A stretch of 15,567 bases of DNA from an uncultured Lachnospiraceae bacterium (GTDB lineage Bacteria; Bacillota; Clostridia; Lachnospirales; Lachnospiraceae): the NCBI GenBank assembly GCA_934394615.1, contig CAKRRJ010000055.1, positions 1-15,567 on the forward strand, in the 5' to 3' direction. Below the pieces are notes generated by a model. The model was given only the letters and a program-made list of their open reading frames with translations, was not told the origin of the DNA and made no database searches. A program made the position numbers and the translations under genes. This document shows, piece after piece, positions 2,411 through 10,522 of this stretch. Each line of letters begins with the position of its first letter. The first letter of the stretch is position 1.

Positions 2411-2426
2411 GTTAGCAATACCTAAC
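2411..2426. promoter_or_regulatory. Operator-like inverted repeat upstream of the feo promoter
   Basis: GTTAGCAATACCTAAC is a perfect 5-base inverted repeat (GTTAG and CTAAC) with six bases between. It lies 28 bases upstream of the -35 element at 2454. It matches the site at 5644-5659 in both arms. The half-sites GTTAG/CTAAC also occur in the classical DtxR/IdeR iron box, but the spacing here is different, so regulator identity is inferred. Confidence 0.65.
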
Positions 2427-2453
2427 AAAAATGATAAAATTTTAGAAAAGTTA

Positions 2454-2482
2454 TTGACTGCTAACCGGGGTTAGCCTATACT
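2454..2482 (+). promoter_or_regulatory. Promoter of the feo unit
   Basis: The -35 element TTGACT (2454-2459) is followed by an ideal 17-base spacer and the -10 element TATACT (2477-2482). Transcription should start near 2489-2491. The spacer is almost filled by a palindrome, and a second operator-like element covers the -10, so a bound repressor would block RNA polymerase directly. Confidence 0.85.
2460..2475. promoter_or_regulatory. Palindrome in the feo promoter spacer
   Basis: GCTAACCGGGGTTAGC is a perfect inverted repeat with 6-base arms and a 4-base centre. It uses the same half-sites as the other elements but in opposite orientation (CTAAC first, GTTAG second). It lies exactly between the -35 and -10 elements. 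Confidence 0.65.
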
Positions 2483-2506
2483 AATTTAAAGTTAGCGAGC
2501 ACTAAT
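2470..2506. promoter_or_regulatory. Two operator-like elements 21 bases apart over the feo -10 and start
   Basis: GTTAGCCTATACTAAT (2470-2485) covers the -10 element, and GTTAGCGAGCACTAAT (2491-2506) covers the predicted start of transcription. Both fit GTTAGC-N5-CTAA(C/T). The 21-base offset is two helical turns, so two dimers would sit on the same DNA face. This layout predicts metal-dependent repression. Confidence 0.65.
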
Positions 2507-2569
2507 TGTGTGTATGTGTCATGCTGGCAATGAGAACTTGAAAACTATACTATTACAGAAAGAAGATGA

Positions 2570-2788
2570 ATGATGATGCCACTTACTATGGCGCCGGTTG
2601 GCCAGGCAAGCAAGATCCAGAGAGTTGGAGGAAACGATGAAACCAAACGTTTTCTGGCAAACCTCGGCTTTGTAGTTGGATCTGAAGTAACAGTAATTTC
2701 CGCGATCGGAGGCAATGTGATCGTGAACATTAAAGATTCCCGAGTTGCTATCAATCAGGATATGGCTCGTCACATCATGGTAGCGTAA
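2570..2788 (+). CDS. feoA: FeoA domain protein (first copy)
   Basis: This 72-residue (or 70-residue) cytoplasmic protein has the SH3-like FeoA fold. FeoA proteins associate with FeoB and are needed for Fe(II) uptake, though their exact role is unsettled. The core reads MAPVGQASKIQRVGGND, then RFLANLGFVVGSEVTVIS, then GGNVIVNIKDSRVAINQDMARHIMV, matching the family pattern of an LGF/MGI turn and a final strand ending in a hydrophobic IxV. Three in-frame ATG codons lie at 2570, 2573 and 2576. The upstream AGAAAGAAG is a weak ribosome site and fits the third ATG at least as well. The gene is first after the operator-covered promoter, with roughly 80 bases of leader. A second, distinct feoA follows 97 bases downstream. 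Confidence 0.9.
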   Translation: MMMPLTMAPVGQASKIQRVGGNDETKRFLANLGFVVGSEVTVISAIGGNVIVNIKDSRVAINQDMARHIMVA

Positions 2789-2828
2789 GCTCCTGTGAAG
2801 TGCGTAACTATATACAAATGAAATTTAT

Positions 2829-2858
2829 CTGCCGTTCCGCCAGCAAAGCGGATAGCAG
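2829..2858 (+). other. Hairpin between the two feoA genes
   Basis: CTGC and TCCGC pair with GCGGA and GCAG across a 7-base CAGCAAA loop, with a small internal loop. No T-run follows, so it is unlikely to be a terminator. It could stabilise or process the feo message ahead of the strong ribosome site at about 2868-2876. The function is inferred. Confidence 0.4.
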
Positions 2859-2885
2859 TGATCTTTGGGAAAGGAGAATAAGACG

Positions 2886-3104
2886 ATGACTTTAGGTGAT
2901 GCAGCAGTTGGAAGTACCGTTGTAGTAACCAAGATCAGTGGTGATGGTGCTTACAAGCGTCGTATTATGGACATGGGTATCACGAAAGGAAGCGAGCTTT
3001 ACATCAGAAAAGTTGCTCCTCTTGGAGACCCGGTTGAGATTACCGTCAGAGGCTACGAGCTTTCCGTCAGAAAAGATGATGCTCAGTGCGTAGAGGTAAA
3101 GTAA
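2886..3104 (+). CDS. feoA: FeoA domain protein (second copy)
   Basis: This 72-residue protein has the FeoA SH3-like fold: TLGDAAVGSTVVVTKISGDGAYKRRIMDMGITKGSELYIRKVAPLGDP-type spacing followed by the strand pair VEITVRGYELSVRKDDAQCVEV. It fits the canonical FeoA motif (MGI, then PLGDPVEI and RGYxLSLR) better than the first copy, so it is probably the classical FeoB partner. The ATG at 2886 is chosen because GGAAAGGAG lies 9-10 bases upstream; an in-frame TTG at 2865 would put the start before that site. It is followed after 50 bases by feoB. A role in modulating FeoB activity is family knowledge; division of labour between the two copies is unknown. Confidence 0.93.
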   Translation: MTLGDAAVGSTVVVTKISGDGAYKRRIMDMGITKGSELYIRKVAPLGDPVEITVRGYELSVRKDDAQCVEVK

Positions 3105-3154
3105 TTTAACCAAGAGTAATATGACAACAATGAGGAAAGAGAGCGAGGAAAAAA

Positions 3155-5338
3155 ATGGCAATTAAGATTGCACTTGCCGGAAACCCGAACTGTGGTAAAA
3201 CAACCATGTTCAACGCCCTCACCGGTGCAAACCAGTATGTAGGTAACTGGCCGGGCGTTACGGTAGAGAAAAAAGAAGGCAAATTAAAAACCAAAGGAAA
3301 ACATGAGGATGTGATCGTAACCGACCTTCCGGGTATTTACTCCATGTCTCCGTACACACTGGAGGAGGTTGTCAGCCGTGACTACGTGCTGAACGAGAAC
3401 CCGGATGTAATCGTGGACCTTGTGGATTCCACCAACATCGAGCGTAACCTGTACTTAACCACACAGCTCATCGAGACCGGTGTTCCGGTTGTAATTGCAT
3501 TAAACATGACCGATCTTCTGGAGAAGAGAGGCATGAAGATCGATGTTGAGCGCCTGTCCATGTTAATGAACTGCCCGGTTGTTGAGACCTCCGCATTAAA
3601 GCAGACCGGTCTTGACAAGCTGATCGACAAGGCAGTTGAGGTTGCTCACAAGAAGGAAGTTGACCTGCCGAAGGAAATCTTCACCGACGAGATGGAAAAG
3701 GCTGTCGCAGCAGTCTGCGAGGTTCTTCCGGACAGCGTTACCGTGAACAAAAAGAGATGGTATGCAGTCAAATTCCTTGAGAACGACAGCAAGGTAGTTG
3801 AGAGCGTAGCACTTCCGGCATCTGCAAAGACCGTTGTAGATTCCGTAAGAAAAGAGCTTGAAGAAAAGCATGATGACGATATGGAGAGTATTGTAACCGA
3901 CGAGCGTTACAAATTCATTCAGAAAGTCGTTTCCTCTTCCGTAAAGAAGGGCAAAGACAAGATGACCGTATCCGATAAGATCGACCAGATCGTAACCAAC
4001 CGTATCCTTGGTATTCCGATCTTCATCGCAATCATGTGGGTAGTTTACTACATATCCGTGTCTACCGTTGGTACCTTTGTTACCGACTGGACTAACGATA
4101 CGTTCGTAGGCGCAATTCAGGACGTTGCAACCACTTTCCTGGAAGGTGCAGGCGCAAGCGATTTCATTGTCAGCCTTGCTGTTGACGGTGTTATCGGTGG
4201 TCTGGGTGCCGTTCTTGGCTTCATGCCGCAGATGGCAATCCTGTTCCTGTTCCTGTCCATCCTTGAGGACTGCGGTTACATGGTACGTATTGCATTCGTT
4301 ATGGACCGTGTATTCCGTCACTTCGGACTGTCTGGTAAGAGCTTCATCCCGCTGCTGATTTCTTCCGGCTGCGGTATTCCTGGAATCATGGCTTCCAAGA
4401 CCATCGAGCAGGATAACGACAGACGTCTTACCATTATGACCGCTACCTTCGTTCCGTGTGGCGCGAAGCTCCCGGTTATCGCTCTTATGGGCGGCGTTAT
4501 GGCTGGTTATGTAACCGGCTGGGATATCGCTGGAATGATCACCCCGATCATGTACTTTGTAGGTATCGTTGCTGTATTAGTTGCAGCTATCATGTTAAAG
4601 AAGACCAAACCGTTCTCCGGTAAGCCGGCTCCGTTCGTAATGGAGCTGCCGCAGTACCACATCCCGTCTGCAAGAACCGTGCTTCTGCATGTATGGGAGA
4701 GACTGAAAGGCTTCTTCATCAAGGCAGGTACTGTTCTGTTCCTGGCTTGCGTAGTAATGTGGATCTTAAGCACCTTCGGTGTTCAGGATGGCGCATTTGG
4801 TATGGTTGAGGATTCCGCAGACAGCCTTATGGCTATCATGGGCGGCGCAATCGCTCCGCTGTTCGCACCTCTTGGATGGGGCGAGTGGCAGCCGGTTGCA
4901 GCAGCAATCTCCGGTTTCAGTGCAAAAGAGGGTATCGTTTCTACCATGGGCGTACTTGCAAACGTTGCAGGCGATGTCGAGGATGCAGATACCGTTGCTG
5001 CTGGTGTTGGCATGTGGTTCCCGACCGCTCTGGCTGGTTTCAGCTTCCTGATGTTCAACCTGCTTGACTCTCCGTGCCTGGCAGCTATTTCTACCATGGC
5101 AAAAGAGATGCAGAGCCGCAAGTGGTTCTGGTTCGCAATTGTATTCCAGAACGTATTCGCTTACGCAGTTACCCTGGTTGTATACCAGATTGGTTCCTTC
5201 TTACTGTATGGTTCCTTCGGTGTATGGACCGTGATCGCATTCGTAGTACTGCTGTTCATGCTGTTCATGCTGTTCCGTCCGGATCCGTACAAAGATCAGA
5301 AGACCTATGCAAAGAGATCTGTACAGTCTGCTTCATAA
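3155..5338 (+). CDS. feoB: Ferrous iron transporter FeoB
   Basis: This 727-residue inner-membrane Fe(II) transporter has an N-terminal GTPase. G-domain motifs are complete: G1 GNPNCGKTT at residues 9-17, the switch region VGNWPGVTVE near 28-37, G3 DLPG at 57-60, G4 NMTD at 117-120 and a SALK G5-type loop. A helical cytoplasmic segment (about 170-275) follows, then the membrane core with the family's Gate blocks, including GCGIPGIMASKTIEQDNDRRLTIM-like and PCGAKLPV sequences with their cysteines. The C-terminus is hydrophobic and ends in a short basic tail. Length is normal. Codon choice (GTT, GTA, CGT, GCA) is visibly more biased than in znuABC, suggesting high expression. It is cotranscribed with the two feoA genes from the regulated promoter at 2454. 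Confidence 0.97.
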   Translation: MAIKIALAGNPNCGKTTMFNALTGANQYVGNWPGVTVEKKEGKLKTKGKHEDVIVTDLPGIYSMSPYTLEEVVSRDYVLNENPDVIVDLVDSTNIERNLYLTTQLIETGVPVVIALNMTDLLEKRGMKIDVERLSMLMNCPVVETSALKQTGLDKLIDKAVEVAHKKEVDLPKEIFTDEMEKAVAAVCEVLPDSVTVNKKRWYAVKFLENDSKVVESVALPASAKTVVDSVRKELEEKHDDDMESIVTDERYKFIQKVVSSSVKKGKDKMTVSDKIDQIVTNRILGIPIFIAIMWVVYYISVSTVGTFVTDWTNDTFVGAIQDVATTFLEGAGASDFIVSLAVDGVIGGLGAVLGFMPQMAILFLFLSILEDCGYMVRIAFVMDRVFRHFGLSGKSFIPLLISSGCGIPGIMASKTIEQDNDRRLTIMTATFVPCGAKLPVIALMGGVMAGYVTGWDIAGMITPIMYFVGIVAVLVAAIMLKKTKPFSGKPAPFVMELPQYHIPSARTVLLHVWERLKGFFIKAGTVLFLACVVMWILSTFGVQDGAFGMVEDSADSLMAIMGGAIAPLFAPLGWGEWQPVAAAISGFSAKEGIVSTMGVLANVAGDVEDADTVAAGVGMWFPTALAGFSFLMFNLLDSPCLAAISTMAKEMQSRKWFWFAIVFQNVFAYAVTLVVYQIGSFLLYGSFGVWTVIAFVVLLFMLFMLFRPDPYKDQKTYAKRSVQSAS

Positions 5339-5383
5339 GCAATCCGTATTTGAATCTTATATCCATTTTGAAATTGAATTTTG

Positions 5384-5411
5384 CAGCTCCGGTTTTCACC
5401 GGCCGGAGCTG
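5384..5411 (+). other. Hairpin between feoB and the small Cys-rich gene
   Basis: CAGCTCCGG (5384-5392) pairs perfectly with CCGGAGCTG (5403-5411) across a 10-base loop. No T-run follows. It sits about 20 bases before the GTG start of the next gene, so it may protect or process the feoB message, or set the level of the downstream small protein. Confidence 0.5.
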
Positions 5412-5432
5412 TGCTGAAAGAAGGGAAACGAA

Positions 5433-5597
5433 GTGTTAGCAGATATTATTGTAGTGGCCGTCATCGCCGGATATTGTTTTTATGTGATCAAGAAGCGTCA
5501 TGATCAGAAAAAGTCGGGCGGATGTACTGGAAGCTGCGCCGGCTGTGCAGGCTGTGCAGGCTGCCATCCTTCCACCCCGGATTCTAAAGTAAAATAA
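5433..5597 (+). CDS. FeoB-associated Cys-rich membrane protein
   Basis: This is a 54-residue protein with a GTG start, preceded by AGAAGGGA at about 5419-5426. The N-terminal 18 residues (LADIIVVAVIAGYCFYVI) form one membrane segment. A basic linker KKRHDQKK follows, then a Cys-rich tail with seven-residue-scale CxxC spacing (GGCTGSCAGCAGCAGCHP, five cysteines). This is the plan of the FeoB_associated family, small proteins found next to feoB in Firmicutes and thought to assist iron transfer or act as a FeoC-like partner; the mechanism is not known. It lies 94 bases after feoB in the same direction and before a hairpin terminator, so it is probably the last gene of the feo unit. Confidence 0.85.
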   Translation: MLADIIVVAVIAGYCFYVIKKRHDQKKSGGCTGSCAGCAGCAGCHPSTPDSKVK

Positions 5598-5604
5598 GTA
5601 ATTT

Positions 5605-5632
5605 CAGAAGGGCAGTGCCGCTGCCCTTTCTG
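5605..5632 (+). terminator. Hairpin terminator after the feo unit
   Basis: CAGAAGGGCAG pairs with CTGCCCTTTCTG across a 5-base TGCCG loop region, with one extra T on the right arm. The T-run is short, so termination may be incomplete. Confidence 0.6.
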
Positions 5633-5643
5633 TAAAAACCTGA

Positions 5644-5659
5644 GTTAGCAATCACTAAC
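5644..5659. promoter_or_regulatory. Operator-like element upstream of the Fur-like gene
   Basis: GTTAGCAATCACTAAC repeats the element of the feo promoter: arms GTTAG and CTAAC, six bases apart, with the same CAAT centre as the site at 2411. It lies 27 bases before the ATG at 5686, just upstream of the ribosome site AAAAGGAGG. No convincing -35/-10 pair is visible around it, so the gene may also be reached by read-through from feo. Confidence 0.65.
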
Positions 5660-5685
5660 CAGAAACAACCAAAAGGAGGTACTTT

Positions 5686-5961
5686 ATGTCAGCTGAGGCT
5701 AAAAAAGGATTTATCATTTCTGAACTGAAAAAGAATGGCTGTCGGATTACCAGCCAGAGAAAACTTTTGATTGATGTGATTTTGCAGGATGAGTGCAGCT
5801 GCTGTAAGGAGATTTATTATAAAGCAGCAAAACGTGATCCAAGTATCGGTATGGCTACTGTTTACCGCATGGTAAAGACCTTAGAGGAAGCCGGACTGAT
5901 CCAGAGAAAAAATATGTACCGGATCGATTATGGCATGGGCGAGAATATGGCTTTCGTATGA
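5686..5961 (+). CDS. Short Fur-family DNA-binding protein (no metal-binding domain)
   Basis: At 91 residues this is far shorter than classical Fur (about 140-150). Residues 8-80 match the Fur winged helix: GCRITSQRKLLIDVI, then the recognition-helix block GMATVYRMVKTLEEAGLIQRKNMYRID with TVYR at 58-61. The C-terminal dimerisation domain, with its HxHxxCxxC-type metal ligands, is absent. Downstream codons in all three forward frames show no remnant, so this seems a natural short form rather than a frameshift. A Cys cluster ECSCC (Cys37, 39, 40) sits in the N-terminal domain. Start: ATG 5686 after a strong AAAAGGAGG. The operator-like element just upstream suggests control by the same regulator as feo. 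It could be a metal-blind repressor, a partner of a full Fur, or a Cys-based sensor. Confidence 0.85.
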   Translation: MSAEAKKGFIISELKKNGCRITSQRKLLIDVILQDECSCCKEIYYKAAKRDPSIGMATVYRMVKTLEEAGLIQRKNMYRIDYGMGENMAFV

Positions 5962-6025
5962 AACAGAGAAGAGGATTCTGCTTTAATAAGGAAGCAAAAG
6001 CTAACTTTTAGCGAAACAGAACCGT

Positions 6026-6070
6026 GAAAAGGGTGATTAATGAGAAAGATTATCATTAACTGCCCTTTTC
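6026..6070 (+). terminator. Terminator-like hairpin after the Fur-like gene
   Basis: GAAAAGGG and TTAATGA pair with TCATTAA and CCCTTTTC around GAAAGATTA, giving a long AT-rich stem with a G-C base. The right arm is pyrimidine-rich, and a second T-run lies at 6085-6091. Confidence 0.6.
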
Positions 6071-6102
6071 TGCTTTTGGGGGAATTTTTTTCAAAAAAAC
6101 AC

Positions 6103-6131
6103 TTGCATTTTAAAAGTACATGCGTTAGAAT
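6103..6131 (+). promoter_or_regulatory. Promoter of the DUF6110 / metal ATPase unit
   Basis: The -35 element TTGCAT (6103-6108), a 17-base spacer and the -10 element TAGAAT (6126-6131) form a good housekeeping-type promoter. The -10 is flanked by GCGT and ACGC (6122-6125 and 6132-6135), a short inverted repeat, and GCGTTA is repeated at 6122 and 6134, which may be an operator. The ribosome site GAGGAGG follows at 6164. Confidence 0.7.
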
Positions 6132-6179
6132 ACGCGTTAAACACAAAACACAAAAATACTTATGAGGAGGAATCCAGTC

Positions 6180-6512
6180 ATGTTAAAAGTTTTAAAAGCA
6201 TTAGATGTTAAGAAATCCGGAATTTTTGCAGCAGGTGTTCTGTTCGGAACTGCAGGTGTTAAGATCCTGGCAAGCGAGGACGCAAAGAAGGTTTACACCA
6301 ACTGCACCGCAGCTGTTCTTCGTGCAAAGACATGCGTGCTGAACGTAGCAGCAAGCGTACAGGCTAGCGCAGAGGACATTCTTGCAGAGGCTCAGCAGAT
6401 CAACGAGGAGCGCGCAGCAAAGGCAGAGGCAGCAGCATTCGCTGATGAGGCAGCAGAGGAAGTTCCGGCAGAGGCTGAGGAGACCGCAGAGGCAGCAGCA
6501 GACGCTGAGTAA
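6180..6512 (+). CDS. DUF6110 family protein, probable ATPase partner
   Basis: A 110-residue protein starts at the ATG at 6180, nine bases after GAGGAGG; an in-frame ATG at 6162 overlaps that ribosome site and is unlikely to be used. Residues 12-31 (KSGIFAAGVLFGTAGVKILA) form one hydrophobic or amphipathic segment. They are followed by the family-typical block SEDAKKVYTNCTAAVLRAKTCVLN with two cysteines, an amphipathic helix (ASAEDILAEAQQINEERAAK) and a low-complexity Ala/Glu tail. I recognise this as DUF6110, a family of unknown function that I recall as a neighbour of heavy-metal P-type ATPases. That suggests a small membrane-associated subunit or chaperone for the ATPase encoded next. A terminator lies between the two genes. 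Confidence 0.75.
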   Translation: MLKVLKALDVKKSGIFAAGVLFGTAGVKILASEDAKKVYTNCTAAVLRAKTCVLNVAASVQASAEDILAEAQQINEERAAKAEAAAFADEAAEEVPAEAEETAEAAADAE

Positions 6513-6551
6513 TTCTGAAAAAGAACGCAACAATGCCGTAACAGAATAAGA

Positions 6552-6587
6552 AAAAGGGATGCAAAAAACAGAAAATGCATCCCTTTT
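6552..6587 (+). terminator. Terminator between the DUF6110 gene and the ATPase
   Basis: AAAAGGGATGCA pairs with TGCATCCCTTTT around AAAAACAGAAAA, with a T-run inside the right arm. No promoter is evident between it and the ATPase start. Partial read-through would give much more DUF6110 message than ATPase message. Confidence 0.75.
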
Positions 6588-6630
6588 CCATTGAAAAGCC
6601 TGAATTCAGTTACGAAAAGAGGAAAATACC

Positions 6631-8721
6631 ATGAAATTTGTGATCAAACATGAGATCCGCGGAAGAATCCGTGTTCAGATCCTGCAGGGCCGCATGAGCA
6701 TTGAGCAGGCTGATACCCTGCAGTATTATTTTAATGCGAAACCGTATTCCATTTCCGTAAAAGTGCGCGAGCGCCTGAGCGAAATTGTGATTCACTACGA
6801 TGGAGACCGCGATACGGTTGTCCGTGATTTACAGACATTCTCCTATGCCAAGGCAGAGGTTCCGGAGTCTTATATCCAGAATTCCGGCCGTGCCTTAAAC
6901 AGTGAGTACTGGGATAAATTAATGACCCGTGTGATTCTGCGTGCCGGAAACAAACTGTTTTTGCCGGCAAGTGTGCGTGCGGTCATTACTTCCGTGAAAT
7001 CCGTAAAATATATCTGGAAGGGAATCCGCACTCTGGCAGCCAGAAAGATTGAGGTTCCGGTACTGGATGCAACCGCCATCGGCGTTTCTATTATAAGAAG
7101 TGACTTCGATACCGCAGGTTCCGTTATGTTCCTGCTCGGCGTTGGCGAGATCCTGGAGGAGTGGACGCACAAGAAGTCGGTTGGAGACCTGGCGCGCAGC
7201 ATGTCCTTAAACATCAGCAAGGTATGGCTGGTGAGCGATGGCCAGGAGGTACTGGTACCGACCAACACCATCCAGAAGTCAGATCTTGTCCGCATTCATA
7301 TGGGCAACGTGATCCCGTTCGACGGCGAGGTGGTAGACGGCGAGGCTATGGTAAACCAGGCTTCCTTAACCGGCGAGTCCATCCCGGCAGAGAAGGTTGC
7401 CGGCGCATCTGTTTACGCAGGTACCGTAGTGGAAGAGGGCGAGATCACCATCCGCGTCAAAGAGACCGGTGGATCCAGCAAGTTCGACAAGATCGTGACC
7501 ATGATCGAGGAGTCCGAGAAACTCAAATCCTCCCTGGAAGGAAAGGCAGAGCATCTGGCAGATACCCTGGTTCCGTACAGCCTGCTTGGTACAGGCCTTA
7601 CCTGGCTCATTACCCGCAACGCGACCAAGGCACTCTCTATCCTGATGGTAGACTTCTCCTGTGCCCTGAAGCTGGCAATGCCGATCTCCGTGCTGTCCGC
7701 AATCCGTGAGGCAAGCATGTACGACATTACTGTAAAGGGTGGAAAATACCTGGAGGCTATGGCCGAGGCAGATACCATTGTCTTTGATAAGACCGGTACC
7801 CTGACGAAAGCAGAGCCGACCGTAGTTGATGTGGTTTCCTTTAACGACATGACCGGCGACGAGCTCTTACGCATCGCAGCCTGCCTGGAGGAGCATTTCC
7901 CGCACTCCATGGCAAAAGCGGTTGTGGACGCTGCAAAGAAGAAACATCTGGTTCATGAGGAACTGCACAGCAAGGTAGAGTATATCGTTGCGCATGGCAT
8001 TTCCACTACACTGGAAGACGAGATGGGCGATAAGAAAGCTATTATCGGAAGCGCTCACTTCGTATTTGAGGATGAAAACTGCGCGATCCCGGAGGGCAAA
8101 CAGGACGTGTTCGACGCGCTGCCGCCGGAATATTCTCACCTGTACCTTGCCATCGAAGGCGAGCTGGCAGCCGTGATCTGCATTCAGGATCCGCTGCGTG
8201 AAGAGGCGCACGATGTCATTGCTTCCTTAAAAGAGGCTGGTATCAGCAAGATTGTTATGATGACAGGCGACAGTGAGCGTACCGCAAAGGCAATCGCAGC
8301 CATGGCCGGTGTGGACGAGTATTACTCTGAGGTTCTGCCGGAAGACAAGGCAAGTTTCGTGGAGAAAGAAAAGGCTATGGGCCGCAAAGTCATCATGATC
8401 GGTGACGGCATCAACGATTCCCCGGCACTTTCTGCAGCAAACGTAGGCATTGCCATCAGTGATGGAGCAGAGCTTGCAAGAGAGATTGCGGATGTTACCA
8501 TCGGCGCGGACAACCTGTACGAGGTTGTTACCTTAAAACTTATCAGTAATCATCTGATGAAACGCATCAACTGGAACTACCGCACCATTGTCGGTTTTAA
8601 CGCAGGCCTGATCGCATTAGGCGTTCTCGGCATCCTGCCGCCGGCAACTTCTGCCCTGATGCATAACACTTCTACACTCCTTATCAGCTTAAAGAGCATG
8701 CAGAACCTGCTTCCGGAATAA
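6631..8721 (+). CDS. Heavy-metal P1B-type ATPase with SCALK membrane motif
   Basis: This 696-residue ion pump couples ATP hydrolysis to metal transport, most likely export. Residues 1-70 (FVIKHEIRGRIRVQILQGR onward) resemble an HMA-like domain of the HMA_2 type and lack the metal-binding CxxC. The actuator motif TGES is at 247-250, the phosphorylated Asp is D386 in DKTGTLT, a variant HP motif reads EEHFPHSMAKA near 425, and the hinge GDGINDSPA is at 591-599. The membrane motif that sets metal choice is DFSCALKLAMP (341-351, Cys344) instead of CPC, SPC or TPC. Related Firmicutes ATPases are often labelled manganese exporter CtpC, but metal specificity cannot be read from sequence. AGAGGA precedes the ATG by about 8 bases. 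It is the second gene after DUF6110 and stands before a DtxR-type regulator. Confidence 0.92.
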   Translation: MKFVIKHEIRGRIRVQILQGRMSIEQADTLQYYFNAKPYSISVKVRERLSEIVIHYDGDRDTVVRDLQTFSYAKAEVPESYIQNSGRALNSEYWDKLMTRVILRAGNKLFLPASVRAVITSVKSVKYIWKGIRTLAARKIEVPVLDATAIGVSIIRSDFDTAGSVMFLLGVGEILEEWTHKKSVGDLARSMSLNISKVWLVSDGQEVLVPTNTIQKSDLVRIHMGNVIPFDGEVVDGEAMVNQASLTGESIPAEKVAGASVYAGTVVEEGEITIRVKETGGSSKFDKIVTMIEESEKLKSSLEGKAEHLADTLVPYSLLGTGLTWLITRNATKALSILMVDFSCALKLAMPISVLSAIREASMYDITVKGGKYLEAMAEADTIVFDKTGTLTKAEPTVVDVVSFNDMTGDELLRIAACLEEHFPHSMAKAVVDAAKKKHLVHEELHSKVEYIVAHGISTTLEDEMGDKKAIIGSAHFVFEDENCAIPEGKQDVFDALPPEYSHLYLAIEGELAAVICIQDPLREEAHDVIASLKEAGISKIVMMTGDSERTAKAIAAMAGVDEYYSEVLPEDKASFVEKEKAMGRKVIMIGDGINDSPALSAANVGIAISDGAELAREIADVTIGADNLYEVVTLKLISNHLMKRINWNYRTIVGFNAGLIALGVLGILPPATSALMHNTSTLLISLKSMQNLLPE

Positions 8722-8775
8722 GCATGTAACTGAGAATCTTTTTTCAAATACAGACATACAACTTTCTGAAAATAC

Positions 8776-8804
8776 TGGACTTGCATGGAAATATCGTTTA
8801 TGAT
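8776..8804 (+). promoter_or_regulatory. Probable promoter of the DtxR-family gene
   Basis: TGGACT (8776-8781), a 17-base spacer and TATGAT (8799-8804) form a moderate promoter after the ATPase stop. A perfect 13-base palindrome (8814-8826) lies at the predicted transcription start. Confidence 0.55.
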
Positions 8805-8813
8805 AGTAATAAC

Positions 8814-8826
8814 TCCCATGATGGGA
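8814..8826. promoter_or_regulatory. Palindrome between promoter and ribosome site of the DtxR-family gene
   Basis: TCCCATGATGGGA is a perfect inverted repeat (6-1-6). It lies 10 bases after the -10 element and directly before AGGAGG (8828-8833). It could be an autoregulatory operator. Its half-sites are unrelated to the GTTAG/CTAAC element. Confidence 0.4.
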
Positions 8827-8843
8827 CAGGAGGTTGTTGTTGT

Positions 8844-9209
8844 ATGCACGAATCAGGGGAAAATTATCTGGAAACAATACTGATGATCAAAGAAAAAAAA
8901 GGAGTTGTCCGTTCCATTGATGTTGCGCGGGCGCTGAATTTTAGTAAGCCGAGTGTCAGCAGGGCTATGGGACTTTTGAGGGACCAGGGCTTTATCTCCA
9001 TGGAACAGGGCGGTGACATCCAGCTCACAGAAGAGGGTCTTTCAAAGGCGAAATCTATCTATGCGCGTCACCTTCTCCTGACTGCTTTCCTGCAGGAAGT
9101 AACAGGAGTTTCCGAGGAAATGGCAGAAGAAAATGCCTGCCGTATGGAACACATCCTGGATCAGGAAGTAGTAGACGGGATCAGCAGCTATATGTCAAAA
9201 AGAAAATAA
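8844..9209 (+). CDS. DtxR/MntR-family metal-dependent repressor
   Basis: This 121-residue repressor has a winged helix (residues 4-65; SRAMGLLRDQGFI in the recognition region) and the metal-binding/dimerisation helices, but no C-terminal SH3-like domain, as in MntR. The ATG at 8844 is chosen because AGGAGG lies 10 bases upstream; an in-frame TTG at 8781 would give an unlike-family extension. Aligned by eye with MntR and DtxR, the ligand positions are Glu10, His76, Cys99, Glu102 and His103, while the position of MntR Asp8 / DtxR Met10 is Asn7. Cys99 matches the DtxR Cys102 iron-type ligand (Glu99 in Bacillus MntR). The local GTTAG/CTAAC sites are its most likely targets, because their half-sites resemble DtxR-family boxes; this is inference. 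A strong hairpin follows. Confidence 0.92.
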   Translation: MHESGENYLETILMIKEKKGVVRSIDVARALNFSKPSVSRAMGLLRDQGFISMEQGGDIQLTEEGLSKAKSIYARHLLLTAFLQEVTGVSEEMAEENACRMEHILDQEVVDGISSYMSKRK

Positions 9210-9223
9210 CAAAAACAATTCCG

Positions 9224-9252
9224 ATATGCCGGGCGTGAGCTGCCCGGCATAT
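9224..9252 (+). terminator. Hairpin after the DtxR-family gene
   Basis: ATATGCCGGGC (9224-9234) pairs perfectly with GCCCGGCATAT (9242-9252) across GTGAGCT. No T-run follows, and the -35 element of the next promoter starts at its last base. It may act as a weak or factor-assisted terminator. Confidence 0.6.
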
Positions 9253-9280
9253 TGACATTCTGAACATTTTGTGACAGAAT
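9252..9280 (+). promoter_or_regulatory. Promoter of the G3E GTPase pair
   Basis: A consensus -35 TTGACA (9252-9257), 17-base spacer and CAGAAT -10 (9275-9280). Transcription should begin near 9287, at the upstream edge of an operator-like element. Confidence 0.7.
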
Positions 9281-9290
9281 GAGAAACAGT

Positions 9291-9306
9291 GGTAGCGGCT
9301 GCTAAC
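9291..9306. promoter_or_regulatory. Operator-like element after the G3E promoter
   Basis: GGTAGCGGCTGCTAAC matches GTTAGC-N5-CTAAC with one mismatch in the left arm. It lies just downstream of the predicted start, where a bound repressor would block transcription. It connects this operon with feo and the Fur-like gene. Confidence 0.5.
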
Positions 9307-9343: not shown

Positions 9344-10522
9344 ATGACAAAGATTGATATTATTTCCGGCTTTTTAGGAGCAGGAAAAACTACTTTTATT
9401 AAGAAGCTTTTACAGGAAGCCATCAAGGGTGAGCAGGTCGTTCTCATTGAGAACGAGTTTGGCCAGATCGGTATCGACGGCGGATTCTTAAAAGATTCCG
9501 GCATTGAGATCCGTGAGATGAACTCCGGCTGCATCTGCTGTTCCCTGGTAGGTGACTTTGGAAAATCCCTGGAGGAAGTGCTGACCAAGTACAAACCGGA
9601 GCGTGTCATCATTGAGCCGTCCGGCGTTGGCAAGCTGTCTGACGTTATGAACGCAGTGCGCGACGTGGCAAAGAACCTGGATGTTAAATTAAACAGCGCA
9701 GTTACCATCGTTGACGCGACCAAGTGTAAAATGTACATGAAGAACTTCGGTGAGTTCTTTAACAACCAGATTGAAAACGCAGGTACCATCGTTATGAGCC
9801 GTACCGATGTAGCGGATTCCAAGAAGGTTCTGGCAGATGTGGACCTGCTGCGTGAGCACAACAAGGATGCGAGCATTGTTACCACCCCGATCGACCAGCT
9901 GACCGGCGCACAGCTCTTAGAGCTCATCGAGAAGCCGGATACCATGATGGAGGAGCTGCTCGCGCAGGTCAAAGAGGAGCATGAGCATCACCATCATCAT
10001 GACCATGATGACGAGTGTGGCTGCGAGGACCATGACCACGATCATGAGCACCATCATCACGACCATGACGATGAGTGCGGCTGCGAGGACCATGACCACG
10101 ATCATGAGCATCATCACGATCATGACGATGAGTGCGGCTGTGAGGACCATGACCACGATCACGAGCATCATCATCACGACCATGACGACGAGTGCAGCTG
10201 TGGCTGCCATGACCACGATCATCACCATCATCATGCAGATGAGGTCTTCTCCAGCTGGGGCCTTGAGACCATCGATGCCTGCAGCAAGGAGACTCTGACT
10301 GCCATTCTTGAGGAGCTGGCATACGGCAACGAGTACGGTGATGTTCTGCGTGCAAAGGGCATGCTGCCGAGCAGTGATAAAGAAGGCGAGTGGTACTACT
10401 TTGATATGGTTCCGGAGCAGTACGAGATCCGTACCGGAGCACCGGATTACACCGGAAAAGTCTGTGTCATCGGCGCAAACTTAAAAGAGGACGAATTAAA
10501 GAAAGCGTTTGGCAGAAACTAA
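9344..10522 (+). CDS. G3E-family (CobW-type) GTPase with His/Cys-rich insert
   Basis: A 392-residue cytoplasmic GTPase of the CobW/ZNG1 class, which delivers metals (often Zn or Co) to client proteins in known members. Visible motifs: Walker A GFLGAGKTT (9-17), ENEFG (36-40), the metal-binding CxCC at Cys63-Ile-Cys65-Cys66, Walker B-type IIEPSG (89-94) and SRTD (152-155) in place of NKxD. Residues 213-297 are a His/Asp/Cys repeat with 37 His and 9 Cys, placed between the GTPase domain and a CobW C-terminal domain (about 298-392). The ATG at 9344 follows AAGGAAAG. A regulated promoter lies at 9252, and the second GTPase begins 18 bases after the stop. The insert could store metal or raise local metal affinity. 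The client and metal are unknown. Confidence 0.92.
   Translation: MTKIDIISGFLGAGKTTFIKKLLQEAIKGEQVVLIENEFGQIGIDGGFLKDSGIEIREMNSGCICCSLVGDFGKSLEEVLTKYKPERVIIEPSGVGKLSDVMNAVRDVAKNLDVKLNSAVTIVDATKCKMYMKNFGEFFNNQIENAGTIVMSRTDVADSKKVLADVDLLREHNKDASIVTTPIDQLTGAQLLELIEKPDTMMEELLAQVKEEHEHHHHHDHDDECGCEDHDHDHEHHHHDHDDECGCEDHDHDHEHHHDHDDECGCEDHDHDHEHHHHDHDDECSCGCHDHDHHHHHADEVFSSWGLETIDACSKETLTAILEELAYGNEYGDVLRAKGMLPSSDKEGEWYYFDMVPEQYEIRTGAPDYTGKVCVIGANLKEDELKKAFGRN
9980..10234 (+). repeat. 60-bp tandem repeat coding the His/Cys-rich insert
   Basis: Four in-frame units start at 9980, 10043, 10103 and 10160, with lengths of 63, 60, 57 and about 75 bases. Each encodes H-E-H(3-5)-D-H-D-D-E-C-G-C-E-D-H-D-H-D; the last is altered to ECSCGC and ends in five His. 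Lengths differ by whole His codons, as expected from slippage that keeps the frame. The His run and the CxC pair in every unit give two kinds of metal-binding site. Confidence 0.95.

What the first reader, a model, noticed from the sequence alone, without database searches (positions are those of the whole stretch)
2411..9306. A shared 16-base operator-like element links feo, a minimal Fur and a metallochaperone GTPase pair
GTTAGC-N5-CTAA(C/T) appears at 2411-2426, 2470-2485, 2491-2506, 5644-5659 and, with one mismatch, 9291-9306. Each lies in a promoter or just before a ribosome site of a metal gene; I found none by eye in the non-metal genes downstream. Half-sites resemble DtxR/IdeR iron boxes but the spacing differs. 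This would define a local regulon, with the DtxR-family protein at 8844 as best candidate regulator.
Basis: partly seen in the sequence, partly recalled or inferred. Interest (0 to 1): 0.75.

Follow-up and report, generated by a model that had tools for sequence, protein, structure and literature searches.

The report
Iron-gene operator, IdeR half-site type
A short DNA palindrome sits on the promoter of the iron-uptake genes in this gut bacterium and in many relatives, and is most likely the landing site of an iron-sensing repressor of the DtxR family that binds there as a single dimer.

Summary
In detail: all five sites lie at the stated coordinates. The core is the palindrome GTTAG-N6-CTAAC; a weaker copy at 2450-2465 was missed. 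A matrix built only from relatives scores the three feo sites and the half-Fur site at 17.8-22.3 bits (about 0.008 per window expected at 16). The cobW site is chance-level and absent between DtxR and cobW in 18 of 18 relatives: dropped.

A perfect TTAG-N6-CTAA lies near feoA in 66 of 78 loci picked by FeoB similarity, against 1 control site, often wrapped round the -10 box. In relatives it also fronts flavodoxin, Dps-like, FecCD, DUF3793, DUF2325, DtxR and half-Fur genes: an iron regulon, not a local one.

The spacing does not "differ": it is the published single-dimer half-site of IdeR (PMC8464063). Best regulator: the SH3-less DtxR-family protein at 8844, the only PF02742 protein in the closest relative. 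Of 23 feo-bearing close relatives, 22 have DtxR and a feo site; the one without DtxR has no site but keeps Fur and half-Fur. Two other genomes contradict this. Binding, direction and metal are untested.

The parts
2411..2426 (.). operator site 1, upstream of the feo -35
   Evidence: perfect core; 17.9 bits with the relatives-only matrix
   Evidence: 9.8 bits; a one-mismatch copy over the -35 also appears in L005, L007, L008
2454..2482 (+). feo promoter TTGACT-17-TATACT
   Evidence: -10 inside the site in 47 of 66 relatives with a site, plus a -35 at 16-18 bp in 38 of 66
2470..2485 (.). operator site 3, wraps the -10
   Evidence: 22.3 bits
2491..2506 (.). operator site 4, over the expected transcription start
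   Evidence: 17.8 bits
2570..2788 (+). feoA1 (start may be the ATG at 2576, by the relatives' MPLTM)
   Evidence: PF04023 6e-18
2865..3104 (+). feoA2
   Evidence: PF04023 3e-21
3155..5338 (+). feoB
   Evidence: PF02421 1e-66
5433..5597 (+). FeoB-associated Cys-rich membrane protein
   Evidence: PF12669 9e-11
5644..5659 (.). operator site 5, 26 bp before the half-Fur start codon
   Evidence: 21.0 bits; half-Fur of relatives has such sites too
5686..5961 (+). half-Fur (minimal Fur): DNA-binding half only
   Evidence: PF01475 positions 1-64 of 121; short form conserved
8844..9209 (+). DtxR-family protein, SH3-less, candidate regulator
   Evidence: PF01325 and PF02742 over cut-off; genome and co-loss evidence
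   Evidence: 5.3 bits; absent in L001 and in 18 of 18 DtxR-cobW1 intervals

Best explanation
The element is a single-dimer operator of a two-domain (SH3-less) DtxR-family iron repressor, most likely the protein at 8844-9209. Its core has the geometry of the IdeR half-site. When iron is plentiful the metal-loaded dimer sits on the sites at 2450, 2470 and 2491, which cover the -35, the -10 and the start of feo about two helical turns apart, and on the site before half-Fur, and keeps RNA polymerase away; when iron is scarce it leaves and feoAB and half-Fur are made. Shown: the sites, their conservation, the fit to the promoter, the iron-type gene content in relatives, the association with DtxR. 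Inferred: direct binding, repression rather than activation, iron as the metal.
For: Perfect core near feoA in 66 of 78 loci chosen by FeoB similarity, 98 sites against 1 reversed-pattern control; -10 inside the site in 47 of 66; 94 strict sites against 10 controls in 16 genomes; of 76 sites fetched from 14 of them only 4 lie inside a called ORF, and neighbours include FeoA, flavodoxin, FecCD, Dps-like ferritin, AhpC, DtxR, half-Fur. DtxR divergent beside feoA in 24 of 69 loci; two sites between divergent DtxR and half-Fur in L016 and L022. Exactly one PF02742 protein in 9 of 16 genomes, closest relative included. Of 23 feo-bearing close relatives all 22 with DtxR have a feo site (18 perfect, 4 one-mismatch); G173, without DtxR, has none. 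Class sample: strict site in 74 of 109 DtxR+ and 8 of 39 DtxR- genomes, p = 4.6e-7 without correction for kinship. IdeR half-site geometry: PMC8464063.
Against: G113 (11 strict sites, some before a feoAB) and G039 (two perfect feo sites) have no DtxR that PF02742, PF01325 over the whole domain, or profile A1 detects; their completeness is unknown. The co-loss rests on one genome (G173), in which a second FeoA-type match was not fetched. In the closest relative the strict pattern is only 4 against 2 controls. No site precedes DtxR in the window, so autoregulation is not seen there. The Asn at the Met10 position is MntR-like, so the metal could be Mn. The inner G of TTAGG is not kept. The window's genome could hold other DtxR proteins.
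Confidence: 0.8

Rival explanations
1. A Fur-family protein (half-Fur or a full-length Fur) binds the operator and DtxR is only a neighbour.
For: Half-Fur is linked to feo and carries the site; PF01475 proteins are in 41 of 41 genomes tested, including G113 and G039 (one each), which lack a detectable DtxR.
Against: G173 keeps a half-Fur and two longer Fur proteins but has no feo site and no strict site in 5.4 Mb; G167 has three Fur matches and no strict site. The operator has IdeR half-site geometry. Fur boxes read differently (recalled, not scanned).
Confidence: 0.1
2. The DtxR-family protein is the regulator but senses manganese, as MntR does, and links iron uptake to manganese status.
For: Two-domain architecture and best profile matches among solved structures are MntR; Asn at the Met10 position, which PMC10317159 gives for MntR.
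Against: Cys at the Cys102 position in 51 of 51 aligned sequences, where MntR has Glu; the genes with sites are of iron type.
Confidence: 0.15
3. Chance or promoter conservation: the palindrome is a by-product of a conserved -10 region.
For: The -10 hexamer lies inside the site in 47 of 66 loci; the 9291 match is at chance level.
Against: 98 sites against 1 control; the TTAG half is not part of the -10 and is kept; sites outside the -10, between feoA2 and feoB or before half-Fur, keep the palindrome.
Confidence: 0.01

Closest known systems
IdeR/DtxR iron box TTAGGTTAGSCTAACCTAA and its half-site TTAGG-N4-CCTAA (PMC8464063)
   Same: TTAG-N6-CTAA geometry, one dimer per palindrome, iron genes
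   Different: no full 19-bp box in the feo loci; inner G/C not kept, outer G/C and A/T kept instead; cognate protein lacks the SH3 domain
IdeR/DtxR proteins of Actinobacteria
   Same: PF01325 + PF02742; the ACR.EH motif with Cys, Glu, His at the primary site and His79 kept
   Different: no SH3 domain; Asn in place of Met10; Glu83 and His98 positions not kept
MntR
   Same: two domains, about 120-140 aa; best profile matches; Asn at the Met10 position
   Different: Cys where MntR has Glu; below the NCBIfam MntR cut-offs; IdeR-like operator
Fur regulons of other bacteria (recalled)
   Same: iron control of feo, flavodoxin, uptake genes
   Different: different operator; by co-loss in G173 a different regulator

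Membership tests
DtxR superfamily (protein at 8844) | N-terminal Fe_dep_repress and C-terminal metal-binding/dimerisation domains | tested here: met
   45.0 bits (cut-off 26) and 55.7 bits (cut-off 27)
IdeR/DtxR proper | C-terminal SH3-like domain | tested here: not met
   121 aa; only the two N-terminal domains match; 46.9 bits against a cut-off of 290 for the NCBIfam DtxR model
IdeR/DtxR proper | primary-site sulfur ligands Met10 and Cys102 | tested here: not met
   Cys kept in 51 of 51; Met10 position N in 32, M in 11, D in 8
MntR | Asp/Asn for Met10 and Glu for Cys102 | tested here: not met
   Asn yes, Glu no; 67.6 of 153 and 58.9 of 138 bits
IdeR single-dimer operator | two TTAG/CTAA repeats 6 bp apart | tested here: met
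   published consensus
IdeR single-dimer operator | inner G/C (TTAGG...CCTAA) | tested here: not met
   G follows TTAG at frequency 0.05
IdeR single-dimer operator | one DtxR-family dimer bound per site, metal-dependent | not testable with these tools
   needs EMSA or footprint
Fur-box operon | Fur box in the feo promoter | not tested
   no Fur-box scan was run

The most novel reading that the evidence does not exclude
A wide group of anaerobes (gut Lachnospiraceae, Erysipelotrichales, some Spirochaetales) runs its iron economy with a stripped-down, SH3-less DtxR that reads single-dimer half-sites and has a hybrid Asn/Cys metal site. It stands in for Fur as the master iron regulator, and a DNA-binding-only half-Fur under its control is a second-tier regulator without a metal or dimerisation domain.
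Probability: 0.35. Interest if true: 0.68.

Novelty: new variant of a known kind. Interest (0 to 1): 0.5.

Why it matters
It gives abundant gut anaerobes a testable iron operator and a named candidate regulator; the listings of my nine searches on this topic showed no paper on a DtxR-controlled feo operator in them. A 2023 review (PMC10317159, passages seen) says it remains to be investigated whether IdeR half-sites occur in other species and what they do; here half-site geometry is the usual feo operator. The Asn/Cys metal site makes a question about metal choice in the DtxR family testable.

Tried and rejected
Rejected: cobW as a direct regulon member; 'spacing differs'; a purely local regulon; Fur or half-Fur as binder (G173; one genome only); chance.

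Led nowhere or limited: a scan of the window's own genome (none held). L012 (short upstream) and L066 (no feoA1) were dropped before the 78-locus count. In one search G048 counts as DtxR-, but it has a DtxR fragment at a contig end; I did not recompute. Of the 39 DtxR- genomes only G113, G039, G048, G056, G073 and G111 were rechecked with profile A1. The 18 strict sites of G013 and G014 were not listed and not fetched (of 94). Of 84 distinct proteins next to sites, 20 went to Pfam; others are named by resemblance only. No structure was predicted and no Fur-box scan was run.

Full report
What is there. The window carries genes that I name znuABC-like from their ORFs (not scanned), then feoA1-feoA2-feoB, a FeoB-associated Cys-rich peptide, a 91-aa Fur-domain protein, DUF6110, a heavy-metal P-type ATPase, a 121-aa DtxR-family protein and two CobW-type GTPases. 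The base after GTTAG is not conserved in relatives (C 0.38, T 0.34, A 0.23, G 0.05), so the core is the palindrome GTTAG-N6-CTAAC. A further copy with one core mismatch lies at 2450-2465.

More than chance. A matrix built from relatives only (98 sites, 66 loci) scores the window at 2469 (22.3 bits), 5643 (21.0), 2410 (17.9), 2490 (17.8), then 2449 (9.8), 5989 (6.7) and 9290 (5.3). About 0.008 hits per window are expected at 16 bits or more and 0.58 at 6 bits or more. The cobW site is therefore at chance level. It is absent before cobW in the closest named relative, Brotaphodocola catenula (L001, FeoB 87% identical), and no perfect or equivalent one-mismatch site lies between DtxR and cobW1 in the 18 of 19 related loci that hold both genes (L188 ends before cobW1). 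An indirect effect by read-through stays possible: in G170 a site, a half-Fur and cobW1 lie in this order on one strand.

Fit to the promoter. The feo promoter is TTGACT-17-TATACT at 2454-2482. Sites at 2450, 2470 and 2491 cover the -35, the -10 and the expected start, 20 and 21 bp apart. In 47 of 66 relatives with a site a -10-like hexamer lies inside the site, and in 38 of 66 a -35 lies 16-18 bp before it. This fits blocking of RNA polymerase (inference).

Conservation. Of 78 with usable upstream sequence 66 have a perfect TTAG-N6-CTAA from -350 to +40 of feoA1; there are 98 such sites against 1 control site. Of the other 12, 9 have a one-mismatch copy, one of them (L044) at a doubtful place, +20; L027 (only 63 bp upstream), L052 and L070 have none. 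Record titles name Lachnospiraceae, Erysipelotrichaceae and Spirochaetales; many are metagenome bins and may be misassigned.

Genome-wide. RGTTAG-N6-CTAACY occurs 94 times against 10 reversed-pattern controls in 16 genomes. The 76 sites of 14 of these were fetched; 4 of 76 lie more than 30 bp inside an ORF as called by my simple ORF picker. Among 20 of 84 distinct neighbouring proteins scanned there are ABC exporter, DUF3793, DUF2325, flavodoxin, AhpC, Dps-like ferritin, FecCD, pyruvate formate-lyase-like, lactate dehydrogenase, methyltransferase and some without a family. FeoA, DtxR and half-Fur genes are recognised by sequence in the same list. In B. catenula the strict pattern gives only 4 against 2 controls, but looser sites front feo, half-Fur and a unit whose first genes resemble DUF3793 and flavodoxin.

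Which regulator. DtxR lies divergent beside feoA in 24 of 69 loci. In L016 and L022 two sites lie between divergent DtxR and half-Fur. Exactly one PF02742 protein is found in 9 of 16 genomes, B. catenula among them. Of 24 close relatives 23 have a FeoA match (G170 only a 41% match in a long fused frame). The 22 of these with a DtxR match have a feo site within 700 bp: 18 perfect, 4 one-mismatch, 21 perfect sites against 4 controls. G173 has no DtxR and no such site and no strict site in its genome, yet keeps a half-Fur and two longer Fur proteins; its second FeoA match was not fetched. G167 has no DtxR, no FeoA match and no strict site. In 148 genomes of the class, 74 of 109 DtxR+ and 8 of 39 DtxR- genomes have a strict site (226 sites against 59 controls; 22 against 15), Fisher p = 4.6e-7, not corrected for kinship.

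Against this: G113 has 11 strict sites, some before a feoAB, and G039 has two perfect feo sites, but in neither is a DtxR detected by PF02742, by PF01325 over the whole domain, or by profile A1. G048, scored DtxR-, has a DtxR fragment at a contig end.

Relation to the known. PMC8464063 (passages seen) gives the IdeR box TTAGGTTAGSCTAACCTAA, in which each dimer reads two of four repeats, and proposes TTAGG-N4-CCTAA as the single-dimer consensus. That is TTAG-N6-CTAA, the geometry found here; the inner G/C is not kept and no full 19-mer occurs in the feo loci. PMC10317159 (passages seen) says that half-sites elsewhere and their function remain to be investigated, and that MntR has Asp or Asn for Met10 and Glu for Cys102. 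The 8844 family has Cys in 51 of 51 aligned sequences (some from the same genome) and at the Met10 position N in 32, M in 11, D in 8: a hybrid. It lacks the SH3 domain and stays below the NCBIfam cut-offs for MntR and DtxR. It works like IdeR at a half-site but I file it as neither IdeR proper nor MntR.

Half-Fur. PF01475 matches only positions 1-64 of 121. Of 25 related sequences aligned, 19 are 82-101 aa and 6 are 132-137 aa. In the 24 genomes I count 27 half-length matches in 22 genomes; 9 of 27 have a strict site within 250 bp upstream of the match and three more a one-mismatch site. The order feoB, half-Fur, DtxR, cobW1 recurs in 8 of 19 loci.

Literature. Ten searches were made, nine of them on this topic. 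The titles and abstract starts listed show no such operator; only two papers were opened. The library lacks most subscription journals, and regulon databases were not available, so absence from print is not shown.

Noticed in passing
5686-5961; L176, L178-L180, L182, L183, L185, L187, L189, L191-L193, L242, L243, L016, L022, L025, L013: A conserved half-Fur: only the DNA-binding half of a Fur protein (82-101 aa), often between feoB and DtxR; its action without dimerisation and metal domain is unexplained.
   Followed up: partly
6162-8721: DUF6110 protein followed by a heavy-metal P-type ATPase, between half-Fur and DtxR, with no operator before either; similar pairs near feoB in L003, L008, L038, L067.
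   Followed up: no
L147:9505-12501, L161:1-2976, L166 (about 992 aa): A large cell-wall-binding protein directly behind operator sites in three genomes; the L147 copy has choline-binding repeats, an FMN-binding domain and a weak Shr-like haemoprotein-interacting domain: possible haem or electron-transfer role.
   Followed up: no
G113 (L270) and G039 (L245): Operators before feo in genomes where no DtxR is detected: incomplete assemblies or another regulator.
   Followed up: partly
L131, L139, L134, L140, L157, L163: Sites also front fermentation genes: enolase-like by resemblance, pyruvate formate-lyase-like and lactate dehydrogenase by Pfam for L134 and L157.
   Followed up: no
L128, L163, L142 and similar: DUF3793 and DUF2325, families without known function, recur behind the operator, which suggests a role in iron physiology.
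   Followed up: no
1-150 and about 9980-10290: Repeated His/Asp-rich stretches in the znuA-like protein and in the first CobW GTPase, as read from the translations.
   Followed up: no
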